Assembly (NCBI RefSeq): GCF_000003815.2
Contig: NC_049994.1
Coordinates: 9,098,469-9,162,468 of the forward strand
DNA: 64,000 bases
Direction of reading: 5' to 3'
From: Branchiostoma floridae
Taxonomy: Eukaryota; Chordata; Leptocardii; Amphioxiformes; Branchiostomatidae
The position numbers and the translations under genes were made by a program. The notes under the pieces are model-generated. The model saw nothing but the letters and a program-made list of their open reading frames with translations. It had not been told where the DNA came from and searched no databases. This document shows positions 9,862 to 62,285 of this stretch, piece after piece. The number at the start of each line of letters is the position of its first letter. The stretch's first letter is position 1.

Positions 9862-12800
9862 ATGTATCAGGGTAAACACATCCACTACTCGGAGGTAGAC
9901 AACAAGCCGCTGTGTTCCTATAGCCCCAAACTCTGTAAGCAGCGCAGGCTCAACGGCTACGCCTTCTGTATCCGCCATGTCTTGGAGGACCGCTCTGCGC
10001 CCTTCAAGCAGTGCGAGTTCGTGGCCAAGTACAACAACCAGCGTTGCACCAACCCCATTCCTAAAAGTCAGGACAGAAAGTAAGTTGCTGTTTCCACGCT
10101 AGATAACCAATATCCCAATAACTGAGTAATGTGTTAGCTACATAGTTCTCTTAAAACCCTTGGATAGTTGAAACCGTATCTTAACTTTAACTAGATACTA
10201 ATAAATCAATTAGTTAAGTGCAAGTTATTGATGTTATTGAATTACCTAGTTTGTGGTCGATGTTATAGGTAGGTTAAGGTAGGTATAGATCCCATATCTT
10301 TTGAGGCTATAGGGCAGTGATTGTTAAGACATTGTGTTTTGGGAATGGTTTTGGAAAACGTCTGGCCAGAAATGCCAGGAATCAAACCTTTGATGTCTCA
10401 GTCTCAATCTTGTGTCTGCTCGCCTAGCCTTGCCAGTCAGCCATTCAACATCAAAAGTTAGTTGTAAATGATGTTAATTCTCTTGTTCATTGCTCTGTTT
10501 TTGCAGCTACTGTAACAGCCACTTACAAGTAATGGGGCTGGCTCCCAAGAAGGAACGGAGAAAAACCTCGAAAGAGAAGGTAAAAAAGGAGCCGGACAAT
10601 CTGGTGCATGTCGGTAACTTTCCTGCCTGGGACCCTGTCATGCCGTCAGTACCACCAATCACCATCAAGCAGGAGCCTCCCGACGAACCCGTGTTTCGCA
10701 AACCGGAGCCGCCCGCCAAGGGGAAATCCGTCAAGTCGCGACTGCACAACAAAATCACTCAAAACAGACTGAAAAAGGAGGACATGAACTGTCATCAGCT
10801 CCCGACTTTCTCAACTTCGCACATGACTGTACCGCCCCCCTCCCCACACCTTTCCCTGCACCCATTCCATACCGGTATGATGCCTTTCCATCCTTCGATA
10901 CCCCCCTCCCCCATGTCGTACCCCCTCCCCCCACCTTATATCCCCCCCACTGTGCCTTTCATGCCCACGCGGCCCAGGAAACCCAGAAAATGCGTGCAGA
11001 AGTACCTCCACGAAGCGCGGAGGTCAGAGGTCAGGAGACTGATGAAGTTGTTGCAATGCAGAGAAGAGGCGAGGGGAGACCTGTTTTCATGTAAGTCAGA
11101 GGTCAACGACCTTGAGTTGTATTTATCTTTTAATCTAGATTTACCACTTGATACTTGAGGGATGGCAAACCTGTTTGGACACCTGCATTTTGGTTGGTTT
11201 TAGTTAATCCCTCCATAATCTACACACATGGTTTGTGGGAAGTAGTGTATTCAAGCTAATCCTGACCACACCATGTCTTTCCTTTACAGTGATAGAGTCA
11301 TCAGACAGCGAGGACGAGTCACATGACTCGTTACCATGGCAACATTCCTGGTTCTCAGATGATTCTGAGGAAGAAGACTCATCAGAGTGAGTGTTGTTCA
11401 TTTCTGAATGTTTTCCAACACAGTTTGATTACAGGGCTTTCAGCGGCATTGGTTTGGCCATGAAATCTGTTGCTGCCTATTTTTGGCGTGTTGTGAGGTG
11501 CCAGTAAAAATGTAGTATGCTGCTCTACTCTATACAATTTAGCCATGTATATTCTTGCTATAACAGTAGACAGTACAAGTTTGTTTCAGTTGAGAAAGCT
11601 GCTTTGCTCTTATCATCTGACAAGGGTCTTGATGCACAGAATGGTGTACATGTAAATATGTCCTTGTTTTTTGTCCGTTCCAGTTCTGTGGATGCGTCGC
11701 CGGTGAGACCGCGGGACAAGCGGTTAGTCACGGTGCACCGTAGCCTGTGCAGGAAGTATGCCCAACTCCTGCAGTCCCTCAGGAGAAGTGCAGACCAACA
11801 GGCACTCAACCAGCAGGAGTCGCGGGCAGTCCTGGGGTCCTACGGCTCGGACAGGAGAGAAACTGTGGAAGTGCTAAGAGAGGAGAGCAGACACAAAGAC
11901 AGTGTGGTGGTCAGACACAGGTACGTTCTGGTCAATATACACGGTTTATACTCCTGCTTGCCTACATGGACTCAGGCCAAGTGCTGCCCCCTTGCTCCTC
12001 CTATATGTATTGCAGTTTGTCCGGCAGTGTTGTCCTTACCTACTGTTTCAGCATCATTGAGTCCTGTATCATTTGGGGGTCCTTCATCCATCATTTGGGG
12101 GTCCTTCTTGCAGTTTCGCATTGAGAGGAAGAGACGCAGGTGTTTACCTTCGTTACCATGGTAATATGTGTGTCCCTTGTTGCCATGGTAACATGTTCTA
12201 CCTTCCCTTGCAGCCACAGACCCACAGTAAGAAGAAGAGATGTGGGTGTGTCCAGGGTGTGTACCGGGGACTGGGAGGGACAGAAGTGCACCAGGAGAGC
12301 CCTCCCCCTCACAAGATTCTGTGTGCAACGTATCCTTTCATTTCCATCTATAGTTGTGCCCTTACAGATTAGAATCCTGACCTTTACCGGTATTGTGTAA
12401 AGGACATGCCCCATGCACACACATCAAGCAGTGGTGAAAGGTCATACTGAATGGTTATATGGTTTGCAACCTTGGCATTTCAGTATGATAGATACAGCTC
12501 AGAGAAAACAAATCACAGAATAAAATGATAGTTGGGAATAAGTAAAAATGGCAAATTACGAAGGAGACTTACACTTGGTCATGTTGAATGTTTAAAATGT
12601 TTCACAGATTAACATACAGAGATAGGATCACAAACGAGGAAGTGTATCGTAGGAGCAAGACAAAACCTCTTAGCACCACCATTACAGAAAGACAGGTAAA
12701 GTACACAGGACATGTGCTTAGAATGCCTGTGGATAGACATGCTAAAACAACACTGCACTGGCAACCCAACAAAAGGAAAAAGAAAACAGGGAAGACTGAA

Positions 12801-15800
12801 ATTAAACTGGAGGGACCTTTACCAACTGGAGATTAACCTTAGGGAAGCGGAAACCCTTGCCCCAAAACCGCCCTGAATGGAGACTACTTGCTGCCCAATG
12901 TGTCAGTAGACATGGGAGGATCTAAGTCTTAAAGTTTCACAGATTGGCTCCTTAACTGTAAAATTTGGCTGTCACAGGAACCAATTGCAAAGGAGATGTA
13001 CACTAGGTTGTGTTGAATCTATGATATGTTAGCACAGATTGGCCCCTTAACTGTAGTGTTAGATGTGGGAGTGAATCCCGACCAGCTGCTATACCAGAGG
13101 TGCACGGCCAGGTTTTCAGACGGGCGGCAGTGTAGCACGACTGTCTTCGACATCGCACACGAGAGACCACTCTGTCAGGAACACGCCAGGAAAAGGGTAG
13201 GCGTCCGCGGAATTTCTAGGAACTGCTGTCAGTTTGATAACTGTAAATTATCAGTGTTTAAATCTTTGCACTGATTTTAAAATAAATTATCAGTGTTTAA
13301 ATCTTTGCACTGATTTTATTTTGGCTTTGTTAGTCGTGCACCCACACATTATACAGAAAATATTTTGTTTTGGCCGAAGTCTAAAGCACTCCAGAAACCC
13401 TCTTTCTGCTCACCATTTATATTGATATTTCAGTGCCTGCCTATTGAAAACAGTTGCTTGTTTGCTTATTCGAAGATTAAACTGTTTTAATTCTTAAAAT
13501 TTATGTATTGAAAGTGTTTGACAATTTCATGGTGGTTGTAATGTTGTTTTTAATTGACACCATTATAAGACACAGCGTGTGATAAGTCAATACAGTTCAG
13601 TGATGTACATATATACATGCATGGCTGCAGATTTTTTAAACGTTTAATATTTCACTCATTTATTGTTTTCTTTCCCTCCTCAGGAACTCTCCCAAAAGAG
13701 AGAAGCCGACAGGAAAGCGGCAGCTGCCCTTGCTGCCCAGCATGGGCCTCCCCCAAAGAAGCCGCGGAAGAAGAGCAAGTCCTCTCACTCCCGCTCCTCC
13801 AAGAAGAGCAAGAGTAAAAAGAAGAGGAACAGCCGGCCGCAGAAGCCAATCCCACCGGCCAAGCCCGTGGGTAACAACGACATCTCGCTTAGTCTGGGGA
13901 TCGATACGTCTGCGTTAAGGTATGTTCGCAAAATAACAACAAAAATATCCACCTTTTTGTCCTTAAATAGCACAACTTACGGAACACTGGCTCCCAGATT
14001 CAACACTATTGTCATTCTTGCAAAGTGCCTGATTTTGGCAAGTGTTTGTCATATGCAAAAAATATAATTGATAAAGAGACTTAAATATTTCTTTCAACAA
14101 CCAAAGAAATTTACTGCTAACTTAAGTAAGCGCTACATACCATCTTCTCATTTGGATACTTGTGATGTACAAACACAAGCACAACTTGTCACAAAGAAAC
14201 ACAACACAAAAGTGGAAGTAATGGTAAGTAATTGTGTATGTTGACTATACCATATCATGGTGTTTCTGTGTTCTCTTTTGCAGCCCTGCACCTGAGGGCA
14301 TTGACCCTGATGACATCACAGAAGACCTACAGGAACTGGACGGTCATGACATTGAAAAGTCCCTTGAGCTTGACATTGATGCCACGGACCTGAATATCGA
14401 TAACGTGCAGTCGGCGCTGGAAGGGACGCATCACGCACCAGGGTTGTTAGAGTCACATGACTTTGCCGATGTCCTCCCAAAGTTGCCGGAGGACTTGGAA
14501 GGTTTTGACTTTTTCACAGGTGGGAAGCCCTGTCTTGTTGTGATCACTTATTGATTTTTCCTTTTGGCACAAGCATAAAGAGTACTTTCTGAAGTGGCAC
14601 CCAGTCAAATTTGACTTATATTTTCCAGTCCCTTTCAGTCATCACTACAAACAGGATTGATATACAAATTATTGTCAGGAAAACTGAAACTTTTTCTGTT
14701 GGTTGTATGCATGAAAATTCCACTGTTCACTCCAAACAGGTTTGACTGTACAAAACACTCGTCAGAAACATTAAAATTTTACTTTTTGCTGGTAAAAAGA
14801 ATCTGTTTGTTTCTAAGAATGCTCCAATAGTCACTCCAATCAGGTTTAACTGTACAAAAAAGTCCTAGTCAGAAACATTGATGCTGTTTGTGTTCTGCAG
14901 GTAAGAACAGGGTGTTTGTTTGTATGTAAGAAAACTCCAATAGTCACTCCAATCAAGTTTGACTGTATCAAAACTCCTAGTCAGAAATGTTGACACTGTT
15001 TGTGTTCTGCAGGTTAGAACAGGGAGTTTGTATGTAAGAAAGCTCTAATAGTAGTAATAGTCACTCCAGTCAGATTTGAATGTATAAGAACTAGTCAGAA
15101 ACCCTGACGCTATTTGTGTTCTGCAGGTAAGAACGGGGAGTTTGTTCCCACACGAGAGGAGGCTGAGGAGCTGGAGCGAGCCTTGGAGGCCGCCAACGAC
15201 GTCGTGAAGAAACTCCAGTCCAACAACGAGCTGCCGAGCCTTATCATGCAGGGAGACGGGCAGGACAATCACATGACTGGTCACATGATCAGCCAGGGCA
15301 GCGGACTCATGGATCATGGGAGTTTGTCCCAGTCTTCGCCCGCCATGGACGTGGGGTCGCTCATGAACAATGACCTTGGGAATAGCGACCTCCACATACG
15401 GGACAGCGGTCTGAACTCGTTTGACCTGGAGAACCCCGTTTCTCTGGCGCTGGTTTCGCCCAGCCTCAGCACCAATCAGGGCATGTTTCCGCCGGGGCAG
15501 CTCAACAACGGAGTGCCATCTCCAAGCGACGCCTCGCGCCGCGGGCAGGTCGACAATCAGTCCCCCATCATGATGAGCCATATTCCCACGTCCTCGCAGG
15601 GCAGTCCCTACAACAACGACCAAAGACTTCTGGGTAATAACGGTCACTACGGTAACGACCTGGCCTCTCTCCCCACCAGTACGGAGGTCGGGACGCAGAG
15701 ACCCCCGTGGAGCTCTCTCAGCCCGAGCGAACGTAACATGATACTGGGCGCGGCGGGACAGCAGATCCTGAACACGGCGGTCGGGCAGCAGCTGGTGAAC

Positions 15801-16073
15801 GCGGGGATGTTTTCGCTGCCCGTGTCGTCACAGGGAATCAGCTCCAAGTACCCGCCCGCCGTGACCTTGGGACCAACGGCCGACCCCATGATGCTGAAGC
15901 AGCAGCTGGAGGGCGAGCGGCTGCCGGAGCACCTGTACTCGCAGCTGCAGCAGGCGCTCAACATGAACATGAACATGGCTCACAACAACGCAGAGAAAAC
16001 CACGGAGCCCACAGACCCCGTCCTGAACAACTATTCCTCCTCGGGGGTGACTTTTCCTGCCAATGGACAATAA
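9862..16073 (+). CDS. INO80D: INO80 complex subunit D
   Basis: Nuclear subunit of the INO80 ATP-dependent chromatin remodeller. Coding exons: 9862-10079, 10507-11090, 11290-11386, 11684-11920, 12214-12329, 13063-13196, 13684-13919, 14284-14519, 15127-16073; all phases agree, giving 934 aa (human about 1,027). The N-terminus reads MYQGKHIHYSEVDNKPLCSY, nearly the vertebrate start, which fixes the ATG. The first C3Hc3H zinc finger (residues about 18-80) runs from LCSYSPKLC to YCNSHLQ; the second, in exons 5-6, has CTGDWEGQKC, FCVQH, CTARFSDGRQC and LCQEHA. A Lys/Arg-rich tract in exon 7 contains RPQKPIPPAKP, as in human. Exon 8 ends with DFADVLPKLPEDLEGFDFF, followed by GKNG and the EEAEELERALEA helix in exon 9. 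The C-terminal third is low-complexity Ser/Gln/Asn-rich. Intron 5 is U12-type. Introns 5 and 8 contain duplicated splice-acceptor regions. Confidence 0.93.
12330..13062 (+). other. U12-type (minor spliceosome) intron 5 of INO80D
   Basis: The donor reads GTATCCTTTC, the U12 5' splice-site consensus. The branch-point motif CCCCTTAACT is at 13043-13052, with its adenosine 12 nt before the acceptor TTAG|AT. This acceptor gives FCVQHVGVNPDQLLYQRC, the same length as the human segment, and restores the zinc-ligand histidine. An AG six bases earlier (after CTGTAG) keeps phase but sits too close to the branch point and adds two residues, so I did not use it. Confidence 0.82.
12611..12933 (+). mobile_element. 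Decayed LINE 3' fragment inside INO80D intron 5
   Basis: The plus-strand frame reads ERQVKYTGHVLRMPVDRHAK and then LHWQPNKRKKKTG, the C-terminal hallmark of LINE reverse-transcriptase proteins (GHVLRM.D.R..K..L.W.P.GKR..GRP). The frame breaks soon afterwards; later pieces resemble EAETLAQDRPEWR shifted by indels. A 12-bp direct repeat GTTTCACAGATT at 12599-12610 and 12934-12945 brackets it and looks like the target duplication. It is truncated and inactive. Confidence 0.65.
13244..13318. repeat. Two-copy direct repeat in INO80D intron 6
   Basis: AAATTATCAGTGTTTAAATC and the bases after it (CTTTGCACTGATTTTA) occur twice in immediate succession, identical over about 35 bp. This is a recent small tandem duplication with no visible function. 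Confidence 0.7.
14600..15145 (+). repeat. Tandem repeat carrying the INO80D exon 9 splice acceptor
   Basis: The unit is about 112-114 bp. It holds CACTCCAATCAGGTTT, a segment with GTCAGAAA, then TTTGTGTTCTGCAG followed by GTAAGAACAGGG. Acceptor-like junctions are at 14900/14901 and 15012/15013; the true exon 9 junction is 15126/15127. Two more degenerate units lie further left (around 14700 and 14790). The unit includes the 3' splice site and the first 10-20 bases of exon 9. Confidence 0.8.
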
Positions 16074-18625: not shown

Positions 18626-18673
18626 GCCACTTGTGTTGTCTTTACTGTATGTTTATACCACAGGGTTTGTATG

Positions 18674-20275: not shown

Positions 20276-20530
20276 GAATCTTATGTGATTTTTTTAACCA
20301 AGCTTGACTTGTTTCATCATGGTGTATATAAAGAAAAGTATAAGAAAATGGAGCATTATACATCTACACTGAACTCAAGAAAGTCATGATCAGCTAAACA
20401 TGCATTATTAACCACAATGTCCTTGGTTATAATGTAACGTTACATTGCCTATAAGATGTAGAACATCGCATGATCATCCCAACATGTGTCAATTCTCAGA
20501 AAAAAAAATGCTTTAACCAAATCAAATAAT

Positions 20531-20803
20531 GCTACGGCCGCGTGGCGCGTTGGTACCCCCGATCCCTCGATCTCGGAAGTTAAGCAACGCGCGGTCCGGA
20601 TAGTGCTTGGATGGGGGACCAACCAAGGACGTCCGGATTGCTGTAGCCTCACGAAGTTTTCCACGAAATCGTCTTCCGGGAGGGACGTAAAACGGGGGTC
20701 CCGTGCTCGAGGAGGTGCCTCGACCACGTTAAACAGCCTCATTACTCATACTTGGGGTACCTACTGGCTGGCAAAATACACCAGATGATTATTATTATAA
20801 TAC
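20531..20803 (+). repeat. 5S rRNA-derived SINE (or divergent 5S gene)
   Basis: Positions 20531-20648 follow the 5S rRNA plan: GCTACGGCC near the 5' end, CTCGATCTCGGAAGTTAAGC (helix III/A-box region), AGTGCTTGGATGGGGGACC (C box), and GCTGTAGCC at the end. The internal pol III promoter is close to consensus, but the outer helices differ strongly from a functional animal 5S. About 150 bp of unrelated sequence follows, ending in an ATT-rich tail (ATTATTATTATAATA). A 5S head, unrelated body and short-repeat tail are features of SINE3-type elements. It lies between the small gene and WDR37. Confidence 0.65.
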
Positions 20804-22179: not shown

Positions 22180-25100
22180 ATGCCAACAGAAGCCGCTGCC
22201 CAAGGGTTTTCCCGCCCGAAGCCCAAGCGCGGGAAGAGCCTTTCGCTGCGCCGAACGCACAGTTCCACCGAAGCCGACCGCGAGAACCCCCGGCATGGAA
22301 GGTGAATAACATGAAAAATCAAGGGTTGGTCTGACGAAATCATGGGGACCTGCATAGGGATGGGGCTTGTATGTTGCACTGTCAACAGTACATGCAGAAT
22401 TCAGGAAGGCAGTGGCTATGTATGAAATTAGATTAAGCCAGCTGACCTTGTTTTGTGCAAAATTCAAGTAACCATTTACATGATATTATATTATCATATG
22501 TAAAATTCCCCAATCAATATCGTTTTTCTAGGCTTCTTTGATAAAACCATGTCCTGAATGTGCATGCATGTTGTATGATAAATTGATCACAATGATTTTG
22601 GAGTGATGCCTTGTTAAGAACCATACTATTTTCTGCAGTTTCACCGTGGAGGTTCAGGAGAGCGTGTTGCCGCCACACCTTCGAGCGCGACTCTGGGACC
22701 TGTTCCAGCAAATTGAGAGAGAGGTGGAGGTGGTGTACGCAGAAAACCTTGCACGTAAGCACAATGAACAACCAAACATGAAAGTCAAAGTTTCGTATTG
22801 TTAAGCGTTTGTATGAATAATGAATAGCCTCTTGCATCTATACGCAAGCACCTATGACAGACAATAAAATTAAAAGAGATAGTGAGAGAATGGGAATAAA
22901 AGACATCGTTGGAACAACAGGTCGTATGCTCTCTCACCACCGTTCAGGTAAAGGTGGGAATCTTGACAGTTTTGACGTGTTAGGTGGTCTCTCATAACAC
23001 TACAGTTCAGGTGAAGGTAGAGGTCCTGACACTTTTGACATGTGATCTAATCTCTCACTACAGTTCAAGAGAAGGTAGAAGCTCCGACAATTTTTACGTA
23101 TGATGTGGTCTCTCACTACAGTTCAGAAGAAGGTAAAACATGTGAACAGGTCTGTCACTACCATTCAGGGGATTTTAGAGGTCCTGACAATTTTGACATG
23201 TGATCTGATCTCTCACCACAGTTCAAGAGAAGGTAGAGGTCCTGACAATATTGATATGTGATGTGGTCTCTCACCACAGTTCAGGAGAAGGTAGAGGTCC
23301 TGACAATTTTGATATGTGATGTGGTCTCTCACCACAGTTCAGGAGAAGGTAGAGGTCCTGACAATTTTGATATGTGATGTGGTCTCTCACCACAGTTCAG
23401 GAGAAGGTAGAGGTCCTGACTGAGAGACTTGAGGCTGGCACCAGTGATAAAGCAATTGGGGAGGAGTCGCTGGATGGAACAGTCAAGGCTAATATTGCAA
23501 AGAACAAGTGTAAGTTCAGGACGAATGTTGCCTTATACCAGATATGGCATTTTGCTGATGACATGATTCATTATCAGAAATCTGTTAATGATAAAGATAA
23601 GGTAAAACGGCATAATTTGAATAATAATTATGCTTTTCTCTAGATTATAACCCAATATTGCTTGAGCAAGTAATGATGTATTCTTAGTTAAGTAGACAGA
23701 TTAAATTGTAGATTTTTTTATGTTGCCTTTGTTTTTACAGCATCCAGTCAACTTTCACAGAAACTGAAAACCACTTACAAGGCCTCCACTAGCAAGGTAT
23801 GGGCAGGGGGCCATTCATGTTACTCAAGGGTGGTCTGGGGTAGTATGTGCTGCAGCATTTGGAATAGATATCAGAGAGTCAAAACTTTGAAACAGCAATG
23901 GGGGCTACTGTTAAGGAATTTAGACTGTGTAACTAAGACATTAAGATTTGCCAGAATGTTTGTTAGGAAGGAGATGTAGAGCTGCTTGGAAGGACCAAAC
24001 TTTAAAGTGTGAATGTTTCAGATGTTAAGTTTTTTTAGATGATTCCCCAGCTGTATTTGACATAGCAGTGTTTAATATTTGTAACATCTAACCAGCTCAA
24101 AAGGAGTGTCAAGATTTTATTATACATATCTATGTATTTATCTCCTGTCTTCCTTAAGTTCCTATCAGGGCTCTCTCCAGCCTCCTTCCTTCAGTTCCTA
24201 AACTTTTGCTGTTTGGGATGGTCAGAAATTTGAACATTTCCAACCCCTTTGGTGGAAAAATTTTGAGGTGGAGAGAGCTCTTTTATATTATTCACATTCA
24301 CCAAGTATTAGAGACATGAGAATATAAGATGCTTTAGAAATGAACCAAGAAGTCCACATTATCCTAGCACATGATATTTTTTGTGTTTCTTGGTGCACTT
24401 TTTCACATCTGCCATTTGTATTTTGTTGATGTTTTCTGGACCATTCCATGTATAAAAGGCACTAAAAAAACAGCAACACAGAAGCAAAAAGTATCTTGAT
24501 GTAAATGTACAAAAAAAGTTTCCATGTTTCCTTAAAATCTGGCTGCCTATTTGCTGCTGTACTAACAACAACCACCTGCATTTGGTCATGTGACTAAACT
24601 GGTGCATCTGGTTGGCTGATTGGCTGGTCATGTGACCTGACCAATGCATCCTGTTTGCTGACTGGTCATGTGACTAAACTAATGCATCCTGTTGGCTGAC
24701 TGACTGGTCATGTGACTAAACCAATACATTTGATTGGCTGACTGACTGTGTTCTTTGTGGAGCCAGATGCAGCACCGCCTTCAGCAGTCCATCGCGCCGG
24801 TTCGCGCCAGGCTCGACACTGTGTCCGGTGCCTCGGTAAATGAGCATGATGTTGGGCAATGCTAGAAACGCTGCCTTTGTTCTGTGATTAATCCTGCCTC
24901 CCTGTGATTGGCTTGTGGTCACATGTCTGTTGTTGCTTAGTAACAGCTTCTTGCTAACAAGATGTAATCAGAAATTGTCAATGTTTTGTGATGTCTTGAA
25001 AGTTTGATGTGATTTGTGATAATTTTGGCTGTTGAATACTCTAATGATTATGTATAAAACAGTGTAAAACTTGTGATTAGAAAAGTGATTATTCAGAAAT

Positions 25101-28100
25101 TATCAACCTAAAATTTCCTGGTCCGTTCTCTTTGTGATGTATTTCTTTGAATACTAATTATTTTTGGCTGTCTATGCTTTCACATTTTTCACATACAATA
25201 TCCTAGATTCACAATGACCTCTAGCTTTAGCCTTTGCACATTATTTTTGGTTTTATACCATAACATATTTCCACAAACTCTGCACAGAATGCAATTTTCG
25301 ATAAACAAAATGCATTGAATGTTAATTTCTTATAAGAATACTCATCTTTGTGTTTCGAGAGTAACACAATGATGTGAAACGAAGGTTGAATGTAGAGATA
25401 TGTTTCTGAGACAAACTTTTGAATCAGAGTTCTGTAATAATTTGCTAGCATTAAAATAATGCGTTTGGTTTTCTGTGTCCAGATTGTGTCCAGCTTCAAA
25501 CCGGCCAACACCAGCCAGTGCCAGATGGTGCGAAGGTTTGTAGGTCACCGTGACGGAGTTTGGGAGGTCAACATCTCCCGTACCAAACCACACGTCCTGG
25601 GCACGGTGTCAGCTGGTAAGATTACAAATAAAAATTTCTGACAATATAGATGCACCTAAACATGAAATACATTTACTTGTATAACTATAAGGAAACTGTT
25701 AAGGTCACCAAATATTAATCTCAATTTTAAATTTGTTTGCTTCCTGCTTCTCCTAAAAGCCTAACCTGATTTTGAAAGACTAAAAAAATAAAAAATTCAC
25801 TGGTCTTAGTGGCAAGTGTGCAGATGTTAAAACACTGGCAGCACCAAATCCGTAGGTGTTTTTTGGCACCTTTTGACAGTTTAGCTGTGAGGCTCGGTGG
25901 GCTGCCAAACTCCACCGTCATGGGGGCAGGGGCATGGCGAGTTTAGAACTCAGGACCTACTGATTCTGATTTCAATGCTCTAGCCGTTGCGCCGCACAGA
26001 CACCCTACACATTTTGAAAGATAATACATAATCTATCTACTAAATCAAAAATTGCTTGTTTATTTTTTTGAATGAACAACATTTAGAACATGTTGTAACG
26101 GAAGTTCCGTTAATGTTTAATGTGCTTTTATATCTTCCCCCAGATCGTACAGCTAAGCTGTGGTGCATGGCTACAGGACAGTGTGTACTGAACTACGTCG
26201 GCCACAGTGGATCGGTCAACTCCATCAGGTTCCACCCAAATGATCAACTGGCTCTGACAGGTTAGAAATGCTGTAAAATCTTTCCTCCAAAACTTTGAAG
26301 AGGTCAAAGAATTTAACATAATAAACCCTTGTAATTAGGCTAATGGAACGCTACACCAAATACCTAGCAGCTAATGACATAAATGAAAGCTGTAGTCTAT
26401 TTGCTCAGAATTTTGTCAAATGCCAAACACACTCCAAGGCTTTCTTCACTCCTCTGGCAACTTTTGATACTATCTTATGCTAACGTAGGATCTGCTTGGA
26501 GATTACAAGAAGTGTCCGTTTGCTACCAAAAGTAAGTAAATAACTCAGTAAAGTATGTCCAAGTTAAGAGAGTCTGGCTCTTGATGGACTCACAATCTTG
26601 AATTCTTGATAATTGTGAAATCTTTCCCAGCTTCTGGTGACCACACGGCCCATGTCTGGAGATCTGCTGTAGTTCTACCTCAGGTTCCACCGGAAGGAAA
26701 TGTGAGTCTCTGAAAACTGTTTTCAAAAATTTCTCCATCATGTATGATAGGTATAGCCATATAGCCAGTATAACCGCCCTTCGAAGTAACACACCAGCTT
26801 CATAAGCACGCGGCGCGGCAGCAGCTGGTCATATTACACTGAACGACCCGTCACACCTAACTTAGACTAAGATCATGAAAATTGAAATGTCTAATTTCTT
26901 TCTACTGACACACAGTCATGACCATTATGTTCAGGATTTTGTTGTAGATGAATGGAAAATGATTAGCGTGGTATATATTGTTATCATGTTGGGTTGTTCA
27001 AGATGACTGTTAACAATCTATTAAGCAGTTGTCAGAGGAAAAAAAGAGTTGTTATAAATGCTTAAGTACTAGTAGTACATGTGTGTTTACCATGTTTTCC
27101 ATTTAACTCTATACCTCCTTTGGGCTTGTCTAGGTGAAAATGTTTGTATCAGTTGTAGCATACAATATTTTAAATCAGCAGTGCAAGAGGCCTGTATATC
27201 TTGTAACGGAGAGAGTAATCTTGCAATCATTTTAATTTGATCTAACATAGAGCTTAATTGGTGCTTTTACTGGCACCTGGCTAAAAAAAATTATATAGCC
27301 TAGAGTTTGATGGCAACCCCCTTTCAGCCCCCAGTCTTGTTTATTTCATGTTCCTCAGACTTCCAGCTATCCACAAATGGGTAAATGGTTCCTCCCTTTA
27401 CATGTCTCCACTCTACTGCTAACCCCCTACATTCTCTTCTCTCCTCTCCCTTCTCTCCTTCCCTCCTGCATCCATGGCTCAGCCTCTTTTGTTTTCTGGT
27501 GTGCAGCGCTCCTCCGATGACGACCAGATTGAGGGAGCAGAGAAAGAAGAGGGAGAAGGTAAGAAGCTTTTTCCTTGAGATTCCGAAGAAGACTTTTTAA
27601 CAAATAGTCAAAACCTGTAAATATCGTATTGTTACTCTTGCCATTGCCATTGCCGTTCTGACTTGTTTTTCTTTTGGCCATGCCAACTTGAAATTCAAAA
27701 GAAAAATATTGCTCTCTTGGTGAAGTTTCTTGGTGAAGAATGTCAGAGAACATTAAAAAATATTCAAGTGAGACATAGAGCATAGGTTTTCCTTATCATG
27801 TAGAAGGTAAAATTCAAAATATATTCTACAAAACAGCAACAGCTAAAGTTGACCATTATTGTTTCTCTCCAGCTGCATCTCATACAGAACCAGGAGACTC
27901 CTCAGACTTTGCTCCCGCAGTTGTGAGAAGTCCGCTCACAGAGTTCACAGTAAGTCTCATATCAGGTCAGACAAACTCGCTGTCATTCAGGGTCAGTCTG
28001 CTGTCCTGTGGACCCCTGTGGCCACTATCACACGTTTGGGACACTTCCCACGATTTTGCTACTGTACCTAGCCTCTACCAGGCTCCGTGGATCGGTGGTC

Positions 28101-30536
28101 TAATTGTAGAAATTGGACAAATAGAGTCAATAATACGCTAGGGGAGTCGGCCGGCTTATTTGTCCAATTTCTACGATCAGACCACCGATACATGAAGCCT
28201 AGTAGAGGCTAACTGTACCAACCACTCACCAACCATGTTCAACGCTGGGTTGGGAGTAGGCGAGAATTCATCCTGTTCTAGCTCCAGTTCATTCCTAATT
28301 GTATCCAAGCATAATACTGTGCTCCAACTTTGATTTTTCGAAACTGATTGTCGGCTGGTGTAGACAGTTGTAAATACAATTTAAAACCAGCGCCCAACCA
28401 ACCACTGGGGACCTTGCTTACAACTAACACAGAACCATGGTCTGGAGGAGGTCAGGAGCTATGCTCCACTATGTGAAAAAAATACAATTAACTCTTGTTG
28501 TAAGAAGAATATTAAACATAGCAGGAGAATGGACTGCATATGTCTTTAGATCTAGAATAACTGTACTAAGTGTCTTTCATCATGTCACTGTCTTGTACAT
28601 TGGTCAAATATTCATTCATTATGACCTTGATGCTATAGATGTACAATTTTCATCTGCATCATTTGCACATGCCGTACTTTTCACCTTTGACCTCTGCAGG
28701 GTCACACAGACGTGATCATCGCAGCTGATTGGATGGCAGATGGGAAGCAGGTGGTGACGGCATCATGGGATAGGACAGCCCAGCTGTACGACTTGGAGAC
28801 AACAGAGCTGGTGCACTCACTCACAGGTGGGCTCTAAAAGGGGTTACCAGGTTACCTGTCAAGGTGGAGAATGGGCATAGAAACACTGGTCACCAAAAAT
28901 GCATGCTGTGTAATTTGACTCGGGCCTAGCCTAGGTGACGGGCTGATCAACTGCTCCACCTATCAACTTAGATAAGTATGGCAGCTGTTTTCACTGTCTA
29001 CAATGTATGATTTCTGCTCCACCAGGCCATGACCAGGAGTTGACCAACTGCTCGACCCACCCCACCCAGCGTCTGGTCGTGACCTCCTCCAAGGACAGCA
29101 CCTTCCGTTTGTGGGACTTTCGTGACCCATCCATCCATTCTGTCAACGTGTTTCAGGGGCACACTGAGTAAGTGTTGCAGTCTTGGAATTCCCTGTTTGT
29201 TTGTATGTATGAGGTACTGCCCTATGCACCATGTATGGTGTGGCAAGGGCTTTTTAAGCTTTATACCAAACCAAGCCATTTTTGAGATAATGCAGCATTT
29301 TACATTGATACCATTTTGAAATGCTATTCCATGTACTTTTTCCTATCATCTTAACACTCTAACCAGTATAGCTCTATACATTTGTATTTGCAGTACTGTG
29401 AACTCTGTGACCTTTACGAGTGGCGACAATGTTGTGAGTGGGAGCGACGACCGGACCGTGAAGGTCTGGGACCTGAAAAACATGCGGTCTCCCCTAGCAA
29501 CCATCAGAACTGACTCTGCCATCAACCGGTAGGAACCAGTTCTGGTCTTCTCATAGTGTGATGTCAATGTTTACTTACATCAGCTTATGAACTTGCCTGC
29601 CCAAGTGCTCTTCTTATAATCATCAGATACTGTTTGTTTGTTTGTTTGTTTGAGTCTTTTATTTATGAGAAGCTCAAATAATCCTGCAGGACGCTTTTCA
29701 TTGAGATGATGTGGGGTCAGACAAAATTCCAGCATCTTCTAATACAAACCCTGTGTCATCTTTTATCCTAAGTTACTAGCGTCATATTTATAGTTTTTTG
29801 TAGCTAACCCACATGATGCCTCCTTTGTTACCAGAATCTCAGTGTCCGCTCTGCACAAGGTCATTGCCATCCCCCATGACAACCGCCACATCCGCCTGTT
29901 TGATCTGCAGGGCGTCCGTCTGGCCAGACTGCCACGCAGCAACAGAACGGTAGGGGGCTCTTCTGTTTTCATGTTCAATCTGTAGCTTGTGGTCTAGCTT
30001 TCTCTGGCCTCTATATATAGAAGTGCAAATTCCTGTCAACTGGCAAACATGCTACTGGAAAGCTTAACTCAAAGGCATCATTCGATGCCTTGGCTCTTTT
30101 CGAGGCTGTAATAGGGGCACATAGAAAAGTTGAGTCACGGCATTGAGTCACAGAAGTGTCCAATGATTATTGACCCAGCCTCTGGACAAAGACTTTGCAT
30201 CAATGCTGGCTATTGTTGCTCACCTGACATGTATACTACTAGAGGGTCCCACTGTGAGAGGCAGGAGAAGGTTCACTGTGAGAGGTAGGAGAATTGATCT
30301 GACACAACGAACAATAAAGACTGTGTCTGTCTTCTCTGGCATGATCAGCGGAAGATTAGCTCTTCGGTAAAATAAACTTTTACTTTTTCTCAGAACACTG
30401 TTTTTCTCTCCATCAGGGTCATCACCGGATGGTGTGTGGCACGGCGTGGTACGACGAGAACCCCATGTGTAACCTCTTCTCCTGTGGGTTCGACAGACAG
30501 GTGATCGGATGGCAGATCATAACAGCGGTAGCGTAA
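22180..30536 (+). CDS. WDR37: WD repeat-containing protein 37
   Basis: WD40 scaffold; in vertebrates it pairs with PACS proteins. Coding exons: 22180-22301, 22639-22754, 23396-23509, 23741-23796, 25483-25615, 26144-26260, 26631-26701, 27507-27558, 27873-27949, 28700-28826, 29026-29167, 29394-29528, 29835-29949, 30417-30536; phases all agree, 498 aa (human 494). It starts [10 protein letters not shown] like human MPTES, which decides the ATG. Residues about 55-100 form the coiled-coil region ([27 protein letters not shown]), then [15 protein letters not shown] as in vertebrates. WD repeats are anchored by [53 protein letters not shown] and [11 protein letters not shown], with [22 protein letters not shown] and [19 protein letters not shown] between. 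An acidic linker ([16 protein letters not shown]) in exons 7-9 splits the propeller, as in human. The final exon ends [12 protein letters not shown]. An extra in-frame candidate exon lies at 24767-24835. Confidence 0.95.
22920..23395 (+). repeat. 58-bp tandem repeat carrying the WDR37 exon 3 splice acceptor
   Basis: About nine units of about 58 bp end exactly at exon 3. The consensus unit is CTCTCACCACAG, then TTCAGGAGAAGG, TAGAGGTCCTGAC, and AATTTTGATATGTGATGTGG. The real acceptor is 23395/23396, and identical junctions occur at 23221/23222, 23279/23280 and 23337/23338. Older units further left are diverged, and one near 23163 has lost the AG. Each unit contains a full acceptor plus the first 25 bases of exon 3. 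The last three units are almost identical, so expansion is recent. Confidence 0.88.
24584..24716 (+). repeat. Four-copy repeat with GGTCATGTGAC E-boxes and CCAAT-like blocks
   Basis: GGTCATGTGAC occurs at 24584, 24626, 24664 and 24706 (spacings 42, 38 and 42 bp). Between copies are TTGGCTGA blocks (reverse CCAAT) and AATGCATCCTG. TCATGTGAC is the asymmetric E-box (M-box) bound by MiT/TFE bHLH-zip factors in animals. The array lies in WDR37 intron 4, directly before the candidate cassette exon. A regulatory role is inference; it may simply be a minisatellite. Confidence 0.5.
24767..24835 (+). CDS. Candidate cassette exon of WDR37 (69 nt, phase 0-0)
   Basis: It is flanked by AG (GAGCCAG|ATG) and GT (CCTCG|gtaaat). 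The 69 nt stay open in the WDR37 frame and would insert 23 residues ([17 protein letters not shown], then TVSGAS) between TYKASTSK and IVSSFK. The block is much more GC-rich than the intron around it, as coding exons here are. Human WDR37 has nothing at this point. The acceptor pyrimidine tract is weak, so inclusion may be regulated. It could also be chance. Confidence 0.45.
25745..26010 (-). repeat. tRNA-derived SINE in WDR37 intron 5
   Basis: Read on the minus strand, GCGGCGCAACGGCTAGAGC looks like a pol III A box. About 35 bp later, GAGTTCTAAACTC looks like a B box. Downstream is a non-tRNA body ending in an A/T-rich tail near 25770. Anticodon-stem pairing is not preserved, so this is a SINE head and not a tRNA gene. 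Confidence 0.55.
28069..28211. mobile_element. 143-bp foldback MITE with 8-bp target duplication
   Basis: The ends are TAGCCTCTACCAGGCTCC and its near-complement. Inner arms (GGTGGTCTAATTGTAGAAAT and the inverse near 28160) make it almost fully self-complementary. ACTGTACC repeats directly at 28061-28068 and 28212-28219. The termini match the 3.6-kb element at 2351, so this is a deleted relative. It lies in WDR37 intron 9. Confidence 0.72.
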
Positions 30537-40980: not shown

Positions 40981-41763
40981 AGTTAGTTTTTAAGAACTGT
41001 AAACCAAGGAGCTTTTATCCTTGTGTAAACTAGCTATCATTAAGACAGTGAAGTCTGCCAAACGCAAATAAAGTTCTTTGACTCTGGTTGCGAAACAATA
41101 CGGCTATTTTCAAAATAGCCCAGACTGATTCCCATTGTCCTTCACAAATATCTGGCCCTACCGTGAAAACTGGCCCCCTTACAATCTTCAAAATGGGTGG
41201 ATCTATATGATGAAAATCAGCCTCATTATCTACGACATCTCTAAGTGAATCTTGACATTGCAATTCAAGATGTTTCAGAAGTGGTTGGGGAACCGGCGAT
41301 GCTATGATTTTCAGGAGGGTGGACACAACCATTCTAAAATGTTTGACTTGACTTTCTCCAGATCCACAATTATAGCTTGTCAACATATATTGTAGTTACC
41401 CTTCCTGTGGTCTTTATTGCCTCATTCATGTATTACTCCGTTTACCACTCCAGTAATTTGCAGAGAAGGCTACCCTTTCATTAGTCGGGCCCCTAAAGGG
41501 GAAGAAGGCCCAATCAGAGACTGTGTTACGCAAGCTAACAGACTACTAGTAAACTCTACTTTGGGTCGTAGACTTCTAGTGGTAATTTTGTCCCTTTTGG
41601 GCCTTGCAAGCTTATGAAAATTATCAGATGACTACTATTAACAAACAAGCTAGCCATTGATCCCACTTGTACATCTATGTATCTGTTCTCTCTTCAGTTG
41701 GTAGTTCCCTATTCTTCAAATACCAGACCACAATGACAACAAAAAATACTTCATACAAAGTTT
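40981..41763. other. Spacer between satellite and KANSL2 3' end
   Basis: No gene supported. A 118-codon open stretch on the minus strand (41030-41386) has an ordinary amino-acid mix but no recognisable motif and no splice partners I could assign. It may be a transposon remnant. Confidence 0.35.
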
Positions 41764-41769
41764 TTTATT
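41764..41769 (-). terminator. Candidate KANSL2 polyadenylation signal
   Basis: On the minus strand this reads AATAAA, about 230 bases after the KANSL2 stop. The predicted 3' UTR between them includes the 17-bp tandem repeat. Confidence 0.5.
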
Positions 41770-41793
41770 TGTAAATACAAAATGTATTGTCAT

Positions 41794-41895
41794 TGAACAC
41801 AATATTTTCATGAACACAATATTTTCATGAACACAACATTTTCATGAACACAATATTTTCATGTACACAATATTTTCATGAACATAATATTTTCA
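41794..41895. repeat. 17-bp minisatellite, six units
   Basis: The unit GAACACAATATTTTCAT is repeated about six times with a few substitutions. It falls inside the predicted 3' UTR of KANSL2. Confidence 0.85.
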
Positions 41896-41999
41896 ACACA
41901 GGTGTATGGTCTTTATGTGATAATAAAATAATATAGTACTTGGGTTCTTTTAAGTTTACTTGTTAGTTTACGCCCATATACATATGATCTTCTGTACAT

Positions 42000-44900
42000 T
42001 TATGATGACACAGCTGTTGATGTTTCACCATTTGTATCCATGGACTCCTGGAATAAGACAAACAAATAATATTTCAGCATATCAAACAACTTCTACAAGC
42101 AATTAATAAAGAGCACTGTTAGTAATAATCAAAACATAGGTAAAATATAATCATATCTTCAAGTTGTAAGTAGTGAAGTGAAGGAACTTAGATTACTTTG
42201 TATAATGCAGTATATCATTTGGTTTGTGAAAGAAAGGAAAGCTCTTGTGCAAACACATTTCATTTGTATATAACAATGTATAATAATTAAGTTTTGTGAG
42301 GACTTCATTTTACAAAAGGAGGTTAAAGTGCTGTTTCAGGTTATGGGTTGCAGCAGGTTCTGTAGCACAATAGCAATACAATGGAAATGCATACAGACTA
42401 AATGAAAATAATATATAATAATAAAACCACTCATTTAAGAATTACATTATACAGAGATATGCTCACTTGTTGAGAAGCCGGCTGGGCGGAGGTAGCTGGT
42501 GTTTCATCTACCAGGGCTGTTGTTTCCTGGTTCCTCGAGGATTCTTCCTTGGTCCCCTCTTCACCACTTTTGGTGTCAGCTTCTGCCAGGTCTTGTCTTT
42601 GACTCTTGCCCCCTGAAGCTGTGACCTCCATGGGCTTGCTGTCATCTTCTTCCACATCTACCTGCATAACGTCTGGCTTCACCTCCTGGCATAAAGAAGT
42701 CTCATTAATGACACTGTGATAAATTAAATGAAGGTACTAAAGTGAGAGTTTGTTAAGTGGGGATTTTAAAACCGTGATACATGTACAAGAAAATAAGTCT
42801 CTCATATTGGCTCATATTGTATGTAGTCCTTTTTCAAACAACAAGCAAGGTATAACAGCCAGGAAGCTACAATTATCATGGAAGCTCATCTGTCTTGGTA
42901 ATGATCATAGTACAAAATTAAACTTTCTTCAACACAAAAGTACAATATACACACAGGAAGCTACAATGTGCCAACACTGCCAACACTGACTTATAACACT
43001 TCCTGCTCCTCTACACCTATAACCAGGTATACAAGTTATTATCATGAAAGAAGTATCTTAAATACCCTTGTTGTGCTTTAGAATTTACAACCTTAAATAA
43101 AAAGGTGTCTAAATAACAATGCTGACAGTAATTCTGAAGAGTAAACGTACAGTTCCCAAGAACATGTTTTGTCTTCCTACCTCCACTATCATCTCCTCCT
43201 CTTTCTCAGGCAGTTTGAACCTCTGCGGAGGGAGGGGTGAGTGTAGAACACAGGTGGTTCTGTCCATCCCCATGGCGACAGGCTTGTCACAGATCTCGAT
43301 CCCTCCTGTGGAATGAGAGCAGTGCTGGAACAGGACCTGGTGAGGGTCGTGAAGGATGTCTGGGGTTAGGGGTCAAGGTTCACACAAATGTTAATCTGTT
43401 ATCCAATCAACATTGTCAAGACAAAACAACATTATCTGTGTCAGGCACTCTTCTCCCCCTCTCACTGTAGTACTGTAAATTCATATCTTTTTCTGGGAAC
43501 TTCAAGGATGCAAGAGAATGGGAGTTGAACACACATCACTACCAGTGGACCAGCACCCTGCTGTAGTGGCATGTGTAGCCCTTTGGCAATTGAAATGGAG
43601 ACGAGCACCATTACTTTCAACAAAAGGTGTGGGAAGGATTTTCAACCTTCAAATTTGATAAAAAAAGGATACGTTGAAGACAGAATCTTGACATGGGCAC
43701 CACATTGTGACTACATCTCTCCCCGTCTATAATGATGTTACAGCGAGGGGGAGGGGTGGGCTTGGTGACAAGGTGGCTCTCTGATGCAGCGATTCTCCTC
43801 TCGTTGGACCTGCTCTGCAGAAGGGCCTCGGCTCCGTGACGCTTACGATATCGCTTGGTAGCGCGGAGGGTGCGGAGTTTCTCCTTGTCAGAGCTGTCTA
43901 AGTCTTCATCAGTAGAAGGAATCACAGAGCCTAGGAAAAAAGAAAAGTAACACTACTCAAACTTTTTACAACATGGTTGTTTTGATAATTACTACACAGT
44001 TGTTGAAGACAGGTACTTTTGCTATAAGTACTGTAAATGCAATTAAGTTCGCGGGGATTTAATTTCACGTTAGCGGGAAAAAGGACTGTTCGCTGTGGTC
44101 TTAAGTTTGCGGTAGCACTGTGCCATGGAAGAATGTTTGTGGTGGTTTTAAGTTCGCGGCGAATTGGTAATGCGAAAACCGTGAACACAAAACCTCCGCG
44201 AAAATTTCTGCATTTGCAGTAACCTCCCAACTGCTGAGGTAGCCCTTTGAACCAGATTTGCAAGGGTTAGAGGTTTAGGCAGCAGGGAGGAGGTTAAGAC
44301 TTAAATATGCTTCAATATTAACTGTTTTGGCCAGATTTTTTCTTCAAAAACAAAGCCCCTGGATGCCATCCAATATCTTCAGATAGGGAGAGACAATGGC
44401 ACATCCTAATCGCCTAGCAAAACATACCCTGGTCATCCTAACTTAAAGATAGGGGTGTTTCACACTCACCAAGAATGTCCTGCTCCATTTTCTTGGCGGT
44501 GAGGTACTTGCGTCTCTTTTCCTTCAAGAGATGCTGCAACCTCTTGAACTGATCTATGTACAGGGACTGCAACCTGATCAGTTTCTCCCGGGTGATCAGG
44601 GCAACCTCCTCTGCAGTGTATACTCCAGCATGCCTGGGGAGAAAACAGGCTCATCAAAGGTTCAAGATCTCTCGAGAGCATTTTTCTCTGTGTCTGCCAT
44701 ATTGGTGATGCCATTTGCATTTCAGGGAACAAATCATAGTTTCAAAGCAGCTCAAAAAAAGGCAATAGCAACAAAATGCTTGAAAATGTACAAGGAAAAC
44801 ACCAGATGCCATGTATGTTTCAGCTAAAATCCACCAAATGCAAATAGGCACACCAACATGGCATCAAAAACCTGCTTGCTCAATAGATATGGAAAGTCTT

Positions 44901-47330
44901 GGAAAACACTCAGAACGACTAAGTGACACACCTTTCTGCAGTGTACGCATTCACAAGAAGTTATTCATTATAAGTATAATTTACGAAAAGCAGTACTATA
45001 AGTCCTACAGTCTTAACCAGGTTACCTGGAAATGATCTTGGAGTTTCTTCTTCACTTTATATTACACCTTTAGAAAAATACTGCAATTTCTCCACTGCAA
45101 GTATTTCATGACTGACATTTGTATGTGAACTGATGTTGAGTTGTGTACTTACTTGAGAGGGTCCTCTTGTTCACTGTCAATGCTCTCAGCATCGCTGTCC
45201 CCATCTCCTCTCCATGCCTGGTCCACCTGGATAGGCTCCTGGTCACTCTCACTTGAGTAGTCATAATCTGGAGCAGATACATTAGAAATATAAGCTGGCT
45301 TCCACATTTAATCAGGGCATAATCGGTGATTGATTGGCTACTTTCCTTTTCTAAAAAAGATACAAGAAAGTGGGGAAACCAAGCAGTATACAGTTTTAAA
45401 ACTTCAACATGAAAATAGGGCATTCGAACTCTGAGGCTTCCTGGTGCAAAATTACATACATACCCGTTATAGCTTTAAACCCAGTGTTTGGTTGGTGTTT
45501 GTAATTTCTGCAAGGTTTTTACATCAGCCTAATTTCTAGCTAAATGTAACACAAGCCCTGATTGGCTGCCACTAACCTAAGACCCTGCTTGGTTGGTTGG
45601 ATGAGGAGATGACATTAGCTTGTGGCAGGGCCCTCCCCAGACTTTTCTCCAGCTCCGGGCTGTAGTGAAGCAGGTGTTCCAGAAGGGGGCCTGAATTGTC
45701 CACCGGTCGCTTCCTTCTGTTAGCCCGCTGGCGCCACATGGCTGCTCGAGCCGCATGCTCGCTGCAGTAACTGTACGCAGATGGATTGTACATTTAAACA
45801 AATGATATTTGGCCCCCTAACAAATCAATTTCAACATACATGTACTAGTTACATGAAGGATATGTAATGTATTTTCAATTGCTGTATGTAAAATAAACAT
45901 TGTGGATTGACAAACAACACAAAAAACACTTGGAAATGTTGACCAGAGACATGAAAGATCAATATGCAAAGAAACAAGCTTGTACTTATGTGAATTGTGA
46001 TTTACTAACTTTCAGGGAGACTTTGACATAAGAAGGTAAAGGAGGTTTTTGCTGGTTTTTAGTTGAAGGTTGAAAGAATGCTGTAATTTGTGAAAAAACA
46101 AAAACATTGTTGACATTTCAAGATTTATCCTGAGTAATGGAGTGGAAGACAGAAATTATGCTTGTAGTGTGATGATTCTCTTCATTGTACCCAGATTCAA
46201 CACTCAACTTCACCTATCATCTTACTTTCCATGGGCTAGTAGGCTTTGAAATGTTCACTTGATGGTAATACTGTAAATGTATTTAATTTTGCGGTAGTGG
46301 GGAAAAGGACTTTTCACGGTGGTTTTAATATCGCGGTAACACCATAGACTGCAGTCTAATACCATAATAGAAAATGTTTGCGGTGGTTTTAAGTTCGCGA
46401 TGAAGTGGTCATTGCAAAAACCGTGAACATTAATCGACTGCGAATATTTCTGCATTTATAGTACTATGGATCACATTAATGTAACGTTCGAGACTTCGGC
46501 TGTAACGTGACGTACCATTTTTTTTCCTTTTTTCTAATGTTGTAATATCAGTATGATTGGAATTATTTGTATGGGCTGCATATCATCTGTAATGATGCAA
46601 ATACATGTATACAGCTTTTTTTGTACTTGATTAAAAATATAAATAAAAAAATACCAGAGATTTCACAATCAACAGTATTCATCCAAGACCTAAGACTTAC
46701 CCATCCCTGTTGGCTGCTTTGGGTGCTGCGTTGGAGCACCGTTTGCCAGACTTCCCTGACACGTAGTTACACTGACGGTACGGCCCTGCCTTATCCTCCA
46801 ACACGTGCCGGATACAATATTCCGAACCTTCTGCTCGTGGCTGGAGGCAGCTACGGTGGATGTAGTTACAGAACTGTTCCTGCAACAAAATTAAAATGTT
46901 AAATATTCAAGCATCAGCCATAAGGGCAAAAACAAAATATTCTCCAGCAACCTATAAGTAAGGTTGTATCTTGAGGTCAGGGTTATTGACTTAGGCACAA
47001 GCACACAACATTTGAAGATTCTGAGACTGCTATGCAGAAAAAGTCCTGCCATTTGGCAAGCTACAATAAATATAGAATGGTAGACAGGATACGCCTAAAG
47101 AAGATAAACCAACAATACACATGGCTTTCTTTAAAATCGAGCAGTAGTATCTGCAAAACATCTCCAAATTTACAGTGAGCCATGGACATCTCAAAGGCAT
47201 CCCTTGTGACTAGGAGTTTACTACTGAAGGTCACCCTTGACAACCATTTAACAAACAAGCATGAATATACAAGTACCTGTTGTAGTGTAGCCTTGACTCG
47301 AGTAAAGGTTGCTGTTCTGTGTTTCAACAT
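42000..47330 (-). CDS. KANSL2: KAT8 regulatory NSL complex subunit 2
   Basis: Subunit of the NSL complex that carries the MOF/KAT8 H4 acetyltransferase in the nucleus. Exons: 47330-47277, 46879-46701, 45770-45577, 45267-45153, 44633-44470, 43930-43673, 43359-43181, 42685-42467, 42047-42000; phases agree, 469 aa (human 492). The first C3Hc3H finger has [42 protein letters not shown] and YCSEHA. The central part reads [20 protein letters not shown] and [20 protein letters not shown], near-identical to human. The second finger has [41 protein letters not shown] and [10 protein letters not shown]. The C-terminus is acidic and low-complexity. The short start exon ([18 protein letters not shown]) matches human poorly, so the ATG is less certain. 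It shares intron sites with INO80D and is head-to-head with cyclin T. Confidence 0.93.
43360..43672 (-). other. U12-type intron of KANSL2
   Basis: Read on the minus strand, the donor is CAAC|GTATCCTTTT, a perfect U12 5' splice site. A CCTTGAC branch-point motif (43372-43378) places its adenosine 13 nt before the acceptor CCCCAG|ACATCC. The intron splits a His codon after phase 1 in FCLQ|HILHD, exactly the place used by the U12-type intron of INO80D. Confidence 0.8.
44029..44221. mobile_element. TACTGTAAATGC-family MITE
   Basis: The inverted ends are TACTGTAAATGCA and TGCATTTGCAGTA. The interior has repeated TTAAGTTYGCGG and GAACA blocks in both orientations. Size 193 bp. It lies in a KANSL2 intron. 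Copies are also at 46269-46463, 32893-33204 and, in reverse, about 4609-4700. Confidence 0.7.
46269..46463. mobile_element. TACTGTAAATGC-family MITE, second full copy
   Basis: It starts TACTGTAAATGTATTTAA and ends TGCATTTATAGTA, with the same interior order as the copy at 44029 (GCGGTGGTTTTAAGTTCGCG). Size about 195 bp; KANSL2 intron 2. Confidence 0.7.

Positions 47331-58045: not shown

Positions 58046-62285
<4,240 letters not shown>

What the first reader, a model, noticed from the sequence alone, without database searches (positions are those of the whole stretch)
9862..47330. INO80D and KANSL2 look like ancient duplicates still in the same neighbourhood, with matching introns
Both proteins carry two C3Hc3H fingers. 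In both, a phase-2 intron falls just before the YC of finger 1 (AA|C TAC TGT in INO80D, GG|T TAC TGC in KANSL2), and a phase-1 U12-type intron splits the CVQ|H / CLQ|H site of finger 2. The shared domain is established; the matched intron sites and the proximity (about 38 kb) are seen here. This suggests that subunits of two different chromatin complexes arose from one gene by local duplication.
Basis: partly seen in the sequence, partly recalled or inferred. Interest (0 to 1): 0.82.

Follow-up and report, generated by a model that had tools for sequence, protein, structure and literature searches.

The report
Linked sister genes with matching introns
Two neighbouring lancelet genes for parts of two different chromatin machines, INO80D and KANSL2, look like ancient copies of one gene, because they share zinc fingers and introns at the same places, including a rare type of intron; when the copying happened is still open.

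Summary
Spliced models show two zf-C3Hc3H fingers per gene, a phase-2 intron one base before the Tyr codon of the YC pair of finger 1, and a phase-1 intron with the U12-type donor GTATCCTTT at CVQ|H / CLQ|H in finger 2. New here: between these two introns both genes have three more; the first two have phases 1 and 2 in both genes and flank an acidic exon. The genes lie tail to tail, 37.5 kb start to start, with a WD40 gene between. A family search of the 513-Mb genome matched only these two genes. A Hox-like homeobox array is on the same contig, 1.14 Mb away. Human INO80D is at 2q33.3 and the KANSL2 locus at 12q13.11, on HOXD- and HOXC-bearing chromosomes, but neighbour tests are mixed (2 of 5 families on this contig). 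Descent from one intron-bearing gene is well supported. Local duplication is the likeliest cause of the linkage but untested: no other animal genome was available, and a listed Arabidopsis counterpart hints that the family predates animals. No paper in the library holds both names.

The parts
9862..16073 (+). INO80D coding region, 9 exons: 9862-10079, 10507-11090, 11290-11386, 11684-11920, 12214-12329, 13063-13196, 13684-13919, 14284-14519, 15127-16073; intron phases 2,1,2,2,1(U12-type donor),0,2,1
42000..47330 (-). KANSL2 coding region, 9 exons: 47330-47277, 46879-46701, 45770-45577, 45267-45153, 44633-44470, 43930-43673, 43359-43181, 42685-42467, 42047-42000; intron phases 0,2,1,2,1,1(U12-type donor),0,0
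10080..10506 (+). INO80D finger-1 intron, phase 2, one base before TAC TGT
45771..46700 (-). KANSL2 finger-1 intron, phase 2, one base before TAC TGC
11290..11386 (+). INO80D acidic exon 3, phase-1 intron before and phase-2 intron after
   Evidence: matches KANSL2 exon 4 by order and phase, not by residue alignment
45153..45267 (-). KANSL2 acidic exon 4, phase-1 intron before and phase-2 intron after
12330..13062 (+). INO80D finger-2 intron, phase 1, CVQ|H, U12-type donor GTATCCTTTC, CCTTAAC near the acceptor TTAG
   Evidence: full branch box has 2 mismatches, not listed
43360..43672 (-). KANSL2 finger-2 intron, phase 1, CLQ|H, U12-type donor GTATCCTTTT, CCTTGAC near the acceptor CCAG
   Evidence: full branch box has 2 mismatches, not listed
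22189..29949 (+). WD40-repeat gene between the pair (approximate limits). WD40 is shown for exons at 28691-28834 and 29031-29168; the exons at 22.2-24.8 kb are added, and the name WDR37-like given, from recall
   Evidence: coding scan; WD40 28.7 and 26.0 bits (cut-off 27)
49902..56154 (+). cyclin T gene, head to head with KANSL2; shown by one exon (49902-50036), the 54.9-56.2 kb reading frame is assigned to it by inference, other exons not modelled
   Evidence: Cyclin-T1 chains E 7.1e-13; Cyclin_N 22.1 bits, just under its cut-off of 23
59067..61408 (-). uridine phosphorylase gene; shown by one exon (61310-61408), two further exons assigned by recall
   Evidence: uridine phosphorylase chains E 4.6e-10; no Pfam match for the two exons tested

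Best explanation
INO80D and KANSL2 descend from one two-fingered (C3Hc3H) gene that already carried the finger-1 phase-2 intron and the finger-2 U12-type intron, and probably the two introns round the acidic exon. The gene was duplicated as genomic DNA, not through mRNA, before lancelets and vertebrates parted, most likely as neighbours, with one copy later inverted and a WD40 gene between. After the genome duplications of vertebrates one member stayed on the HOXD-bearing chromosome and the other on the HOXC-bearing one. Functionally each copy is inferred to be the adaptor that ties its complex together around shared partners: MCRS1 is in both the INO80 and the NSL complex, and the C3Hc3H subunit is what differs. 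Shown: fingers, introns, order, linkage, family matches. Inferred: local duplication, its date, the vertebrate sorting, the adaptor role.
For: Two fingers each; BLASTP between the two E 6e-17, plus a second segment 1e-8 that reaches the start of finger 2 in the part printed; identity 27 of 61 in finger 1 and 19 of 64 in finger 2. Introns matching in site, phase and donor class. Phase series from finger 1 to finger 2: INO80D 2-1-2-2-1(U12), KANSL2 2-1-2-1-1(U12). Only these two genes matched by the family search in 513 Mb (4 matches, 16 of 16 candidates scored). [quoted passage not shown] whether it is this intron was not seen. Same contig as a Hox-like array, 12 of 43 homeodomain matches, all on one strand, at C16:10.30-10.64 Mb; a fibrillar-collagen gene (4 of 18 matches) and one of two STAT matches also on C16. 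Human INO80D 2q33.3 (PMC12546167, table passage), C12orf41 (= KANSL2, recalled synonym) 12q13.11 (PMC3766210). MCRS1 with NSL and INO80 members (PMC6607013); MCRS1 and FLJ20309 (INO80D by recall) both in the human INO80 list (PMC6770637, flattened table).
Against: Tail-to-tail orientation with a gene between is not a simple tandem. The last intron before the U12-type one differs in phase (2 versus 1). The acidic exons match by order and phase only; the aligners did not put them together. KANSL2 has a phase-0 intron before finger 1 that INO80D lacks, and the introns after finger 2 do not line up residue by residue. Both U12-type calls rest on the donor; the branch boxes have 2 mismatches each to TTCCTTRAY. 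Of five families tried (chosen from recall as human 2q/12q families), three are not on C16: pKID only on C10, 0 of 47 Wnt matches, the NDUFS1 domain only on C19; the two that are on C16, collagen and STAT, were chosen after pKID and Wnt had come back negative. So those human bands are mosaics and the Hox-linkage argument is only moderate. A comparison of ORFs left against right of base 36,000 found no trace of a larger duplicated block (2 of 8 rows are the fingers, 6 look like repeats). No other animal genome examined.
Confidence: 0.62

Rival explanations
1. The two genes are true paralogues with inherited introns, but the duplication is very old (before animals), the copies separated, and their present 38-kb closeness in this lancelet is secondary or accidental.
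For: Arabidopsis counterpart of KANSL2 listed as INO80 complex subunit D-like (PMC6607013, passages). Inverted orientation and an intervening gene.
Against: Two random sites fall within 37.5 kb with probability about 1.5e-4 genome-wide, or 0.4% given the same chromosome.
Confidence: 0.28
2. The matched introns are parallel insertions at similar sequences, so they say nothing about descent.
For: Introns can recur at preferred sites (general knowledge); the last intron before the U12-type one differs in phase.
Against: Two of two domain introns coincide in site and phase, chance about 1.4e-5 on a simple model, and one has the U12-type donor in both genes, a class under 0.5% of human introns (abstract start of PMC6865273 in the listing).
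Confidence: 0.03
3. INO80D and KANSL2 are a pair left by the vertebrate genome duplications (ohnologues).
For: Human locations on HOXD- and HOXC-bearing chromosomes (PMC12546167; PMC3766210; Hox-linked families of these bands in PMC2235844, passages).
Against: Both genes are already separate in this lancelet genome, which shows one large Hox-like array.
Confidence: 0.02

Closest known systems
zf-C3Hc3H family (PF13891): INO80D of the INO80 remodelling complex
   Same: Two fingers, over the curated cut-off; N-terminal 84 residues match a remembered human INO80D fragment at 74 sites (from memory)
   Different: No defined difference tested; exon structure of the human gene not seen
zf-C3Hc3H family (PF13891): KANSL2/NSL2/Dgt1/SUMV-1 of the NSL complex
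   Same: Two fingers; middle region matches a remembered human KANSL2 fragment at 68 of 83 sites (from memory); a predicted U12-type 3' splice site is reported for human KANSL2 (PMC10853781, one passage)
   Different: The human locus C12orf41 hosts SNORA2B (PMC3766210); no snoRNA family reached its cut-off in the window and none up to E 1 on the gene's strand in 41900-47500
Minor-intron-rich paralogue families
   Same: A single ancestral U12-type intron passed to duplicates, the pattern described in PMC6865273 (passages)
   Different: The passages seen name CRTC, PROX and ERICH among others; INO80D and C12orf41 do not occur in that paper's main text

Membership tests
zf-C3Hc3H (PF13891) | domain score above the curated cut-off of 27 bits | tested here: met
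   110.8 and 100.9 bits, two stretches each
Paralogues of one intron-bearing gene | introns at the same aligned site and phase | tested here: met
   finger-1 phase 2 and finger-2 phase 1; finger-1 exactness is relative to YC
Paralogues of one intron-bearing gene | residue-level alignment of the acidic and following exons between the fingers | tested here: inconclusive
   order and phases 1,2 agree; aligners do not join the exons
U12-type introns | RTATCCTT donor | tested here: met
   GTATCCTT at 12330 (+) and 43672 (-)
U12-type introns | TTCCTTRAY branch site near the acceptor | tested here: inconclusive
   core CCTTAAC and CCTTGAC present, full box with 2 mismatches each, not among the sites with at most 1 mismatch
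Local (tandem) duplicates | same orientation and direct adjacency | tested here: not met
   tail to tail, WD40 gene between
Local (tandem) duplicates | linkage shared by other invertebrates | not testable with these tools
   no other animal genome held; viral contigs scanned with the INO80D finger and genome contigs with the KANSL2 finger gave no relatives
KANSL2 orthologues | WDR5-binding motif (human L411, V413) | not tested
   a VMQVDVEED stretch lies in exon 8; human residues from PMC6607013
2R ohnologues | single pre-duplicate gene in lancelet | tested here: not met
   two genes in the lancelet

The most novel reading that the evidence does not exclude
The pair is a surviving local duplication older than bilaterians on the Hox-bearing chromosome. 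In vertebrates reciprocal losses after the genome duplications left INO80D on the HOXD chromosome and KANSL2 on the HOXC chromosome, so that they imitate an ohnologue pair. The duplication gave the INO80 and NSL complexes sister adaptor subunits around shared MCRS1.
Probability: 0.3. Interest if true: 0.65.

Novelty: new member of a known kind. Interest (0 to 1): 0.5.

Why it matters
INO80D and KANSL2 are subunits of two chromatin complexes, and the passages I read place MCRS1 with both (PMC6607013; PMC6770637). A shared origin with the same introns would fit the plant counterpart of KANSL2 being named after INO80D, and would make it testable whether the C3Hc3H subunit is the MCRS1-holding adaptor in each. 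It also gives a case where human chromosome positions alone would suggest a genome-duplication pair but the lancelet shows an older duplication.

Tried and rejected
Solved structures: no chain matched by sequence up to E 0.1, for KANSL2 whole (469 aa) and for the first 669 of 934 residues of INO80D, so no structural comparison; chains under 20 residues are not in that file. Scans of viral contigs with 90 residues of INO80D and of genome contigs with 86 residues of KANSL2 found no relatives. A larger duplicated block: blastp of window ORFs of 30 aa or more, left against right of base 36,000, gave 8 rows, 2 of them the two genes' fingers and 6 that look like repeats; pairs within one half were not compared. 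snoRNA in KANSL2 introns, as in human: none (one search gave one sR42 match far below its cut-off, on the other strand, E 0.45). Literature: no paper with both KANSL2 and INO80D, none with three of INO80D, KANSL2, paralog, zf-C3Hc3H, NSL2; in the 20 listed of 116 papers on U12-type or minor introns KANSL2 occurs in one and INO80D in none. KANSL2 with CCNT1 and synteny terms: none. Pfam also gave zf-primase for INO80D at 20.6 bits, under its cut-off of 28.8; disregarded. An acceptor GTAG|TG for the INO80D U12-type intron was considered and rejected: it loses the zinc-binding His and lies closer to the presumed branch site than usual (recalled).
Full report
What was checked. The window is C16:9098469-9162468 of a 513-Mb assembly in 431 contigs, a lancelet by content (inference from the Hox-like array, the gene content and the genome size). 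I built spliced models of both genes by hand and tested frames, phases and splice sites. INO80D has nine coding exons on the + strand (9862-16073, 934 aa); KANSL2 has nine on the - strand (47330-42000, 469 aa). Pfam finds zf-C3Hc3H twice in each; the only other match up to E 0.001, zf-primase in INO80D, is under its cut-off.

The introns. Finger 1: phase 2, one base before TAC TGT (INO80D) and TAC TGC (KANSL2). Relative to the cysteines before it, KANSL2 carries one extra residue, so the match is exact to YC. Finger 2: phase 1, CVQ|H and CLQ|H, donors GTATCCTTTC and GTATCCTTTT. These are the only two GTATCCTT sites in the window; three further RTATCCTT sites are ATATCCTT, and the total of 5 is what chance gives (4.46), so the motif counts only because of where it sits. 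Of 16 introns in the two genes, 2 have this donor, one per gene, at the same place. Near the acceptors are CCTTAAC and CCTTGAC, which fit the core of the U12-type branch site, but the full box TTCCTTRAY has two mismatches in each and neither is in the list of sites with at most one. The U12-type label therefore rests on the donor.

Beyond the finding. Between the finger-1 intron and the U12-type intron both genes have three introns. Phases are 1,2,2 in INO80D and 1,2,1 in KANSL2; in both an acidic exon lies between the phase-1 and the phase-2 intron, and the exon after it is charged and, by eye, helix-like. This order supports a common gene structure, but the sequence aligners do not join these exons, and agreement of two phases by chance is not rare (inference). 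After finger 2 both have a phase-0 intron, 4 residues beyond the last His in INO80D and 20 in KANSL2, not aligned with each other. KANSL2 alone has a phase-0 intron just before finger 1.

Neighbourhood. Order: INO80D (+), a WD40 gene (+; WD40 in two exons tested, the WDR37 resemblance recalled), KANSL2 (-), cyclin T (+, one exon), uridine phosphorylase (-, one exon). Start to start 37,468 bases, stop to stop 25.9 kb. The whole-genome family search gives four matches, a piece of each finger of each of the two genes, and nothing else at E 0.001 (16 of 16 candidates scored; a diverged or finely split relative could be missed). Tests of families placed on human 2q/12q, by recall: pKID only on C10, Wnt 0 of 47 matches on C16, the NDUFS1 domain only on C19; fibrillar collagen, 4 of 18 matches on C16 including the best, and STAT, 1 of 2. 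The last two were chosen after pKID and Wnt were negative. So 2 of 5 families support it and C16 shares part, not all, of the human neighbourhood. Human positions: INO80D 2q33.3 (PMC12546167, one table passage); C12orf41, the older name of KANSL2 by recall, 12q13.11 (PMC3766210, passages); HOX-linked families in these bands (PMC2235844, passages); HoxD on an alpha and HoxC on a beta segment of CLGB (PMC7269912, passages). From recall, CCNT1 is the neighbour of KANSL2 in human too; no call shows it (one search found no paper).

Reading. Shared fingers, intron sites, phases and a rare donor class leave little doubt that both genes descend from one intron-bearing gene and that the duplication was of genomic DNA. 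The finger identity between them is low (27 of 61, 19 of 64), so the split is old or was followed by fast change. A review lists an Arabidopsis 'INO80 complex subunit D-like' protein as the KANSL2 counterpart (PMC6607013, passages), while another paper speaks of six metazoan-specific INO80 subunits on the N-terminal module, not named in the passage I saw (PMC10341740). Both fit a single older gene that gave INO80D in animals, but they do not prove it. Linkage by chance has probability about 1.5e-4 genome-wide, or 0.4% on one chromosome; this favours a local origin, without excluding later approach.

Function. From the papers: MCRS1 co-immunoprecipitates NSL and INO80 members, KANSL2 has been identified only in NSL and binds WDR5 (PMC6607013, passages); FLJ20309 (INO80D by recall) and MCRS1 both stand in the human INO80 list (PMC6770637, flattened table). 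My inference is that the C3Hc3H subunit is the adaptor by which each complex holds common partners, and that the duplication let one adaptor specialise for each complex. No structure was found by sequence for KANSL2 or for the first 669 residues of INO80D, so this is untested.

Literature. No paper of the library holds both KANSL2 and INO80D. Searches (25 of 76 listed; 20 of 116 listed) listed none that treats them as paralogues, as far as titles, abstract starts and the passages I read show. I saw passages of 14 papers and the whole text of none. Subscription papers are not covered, and databases of paralogues may list the pair.

Noticed in passing
14699-15146: A 112-bp minisatellite in the last intron of INO80D is built of copies of the exon-9 acceptor plus exon start; three near-identical TTCTGCAGGT.AGAAC.GGG copies start at 14893, 15005 and 15119, the last holding the splice site of my model.
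   Followed up: partly
22998-23420: A similar pattern in the WD40 gene: a 58-bp array whose units look like acceptor plus exon start, the last copy (23388) running into a predicted exon. Two genes in one window with such arrays may mean a common process.
   Followed up: partly
39740-40981: 206-bp tandem repeat, 6 copies, 92% matches, beyond the KANSL2 3' end.
   Followed up: no
20530-20649: 5S rRNA match, 51.7 bits over a cut-off of 38, between INO80D and the WD40 gene; may be a 5S-derived repeat.
   Followed up: no
L006-L015 (C16:8998469-9098468): Left flank holds several RING/B-box/NHL (TRIM-like) coding stretches, apparently a local expansion (family by eye).
   Followed up: no
L016-L025 (C16:9162469-9262468): Right flank shows coding stretches resembling methionine synthase reductase, phosphopantothenoylcysteine synthetase, fatty-acid hydroxylases and repeated tyrosinase-like genes (names by eye).
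   Followed up: no
55782-55881: A run of 100 N lies between two predicted coding stretches that I assign to the cyclin T gene.
   Followed up: no
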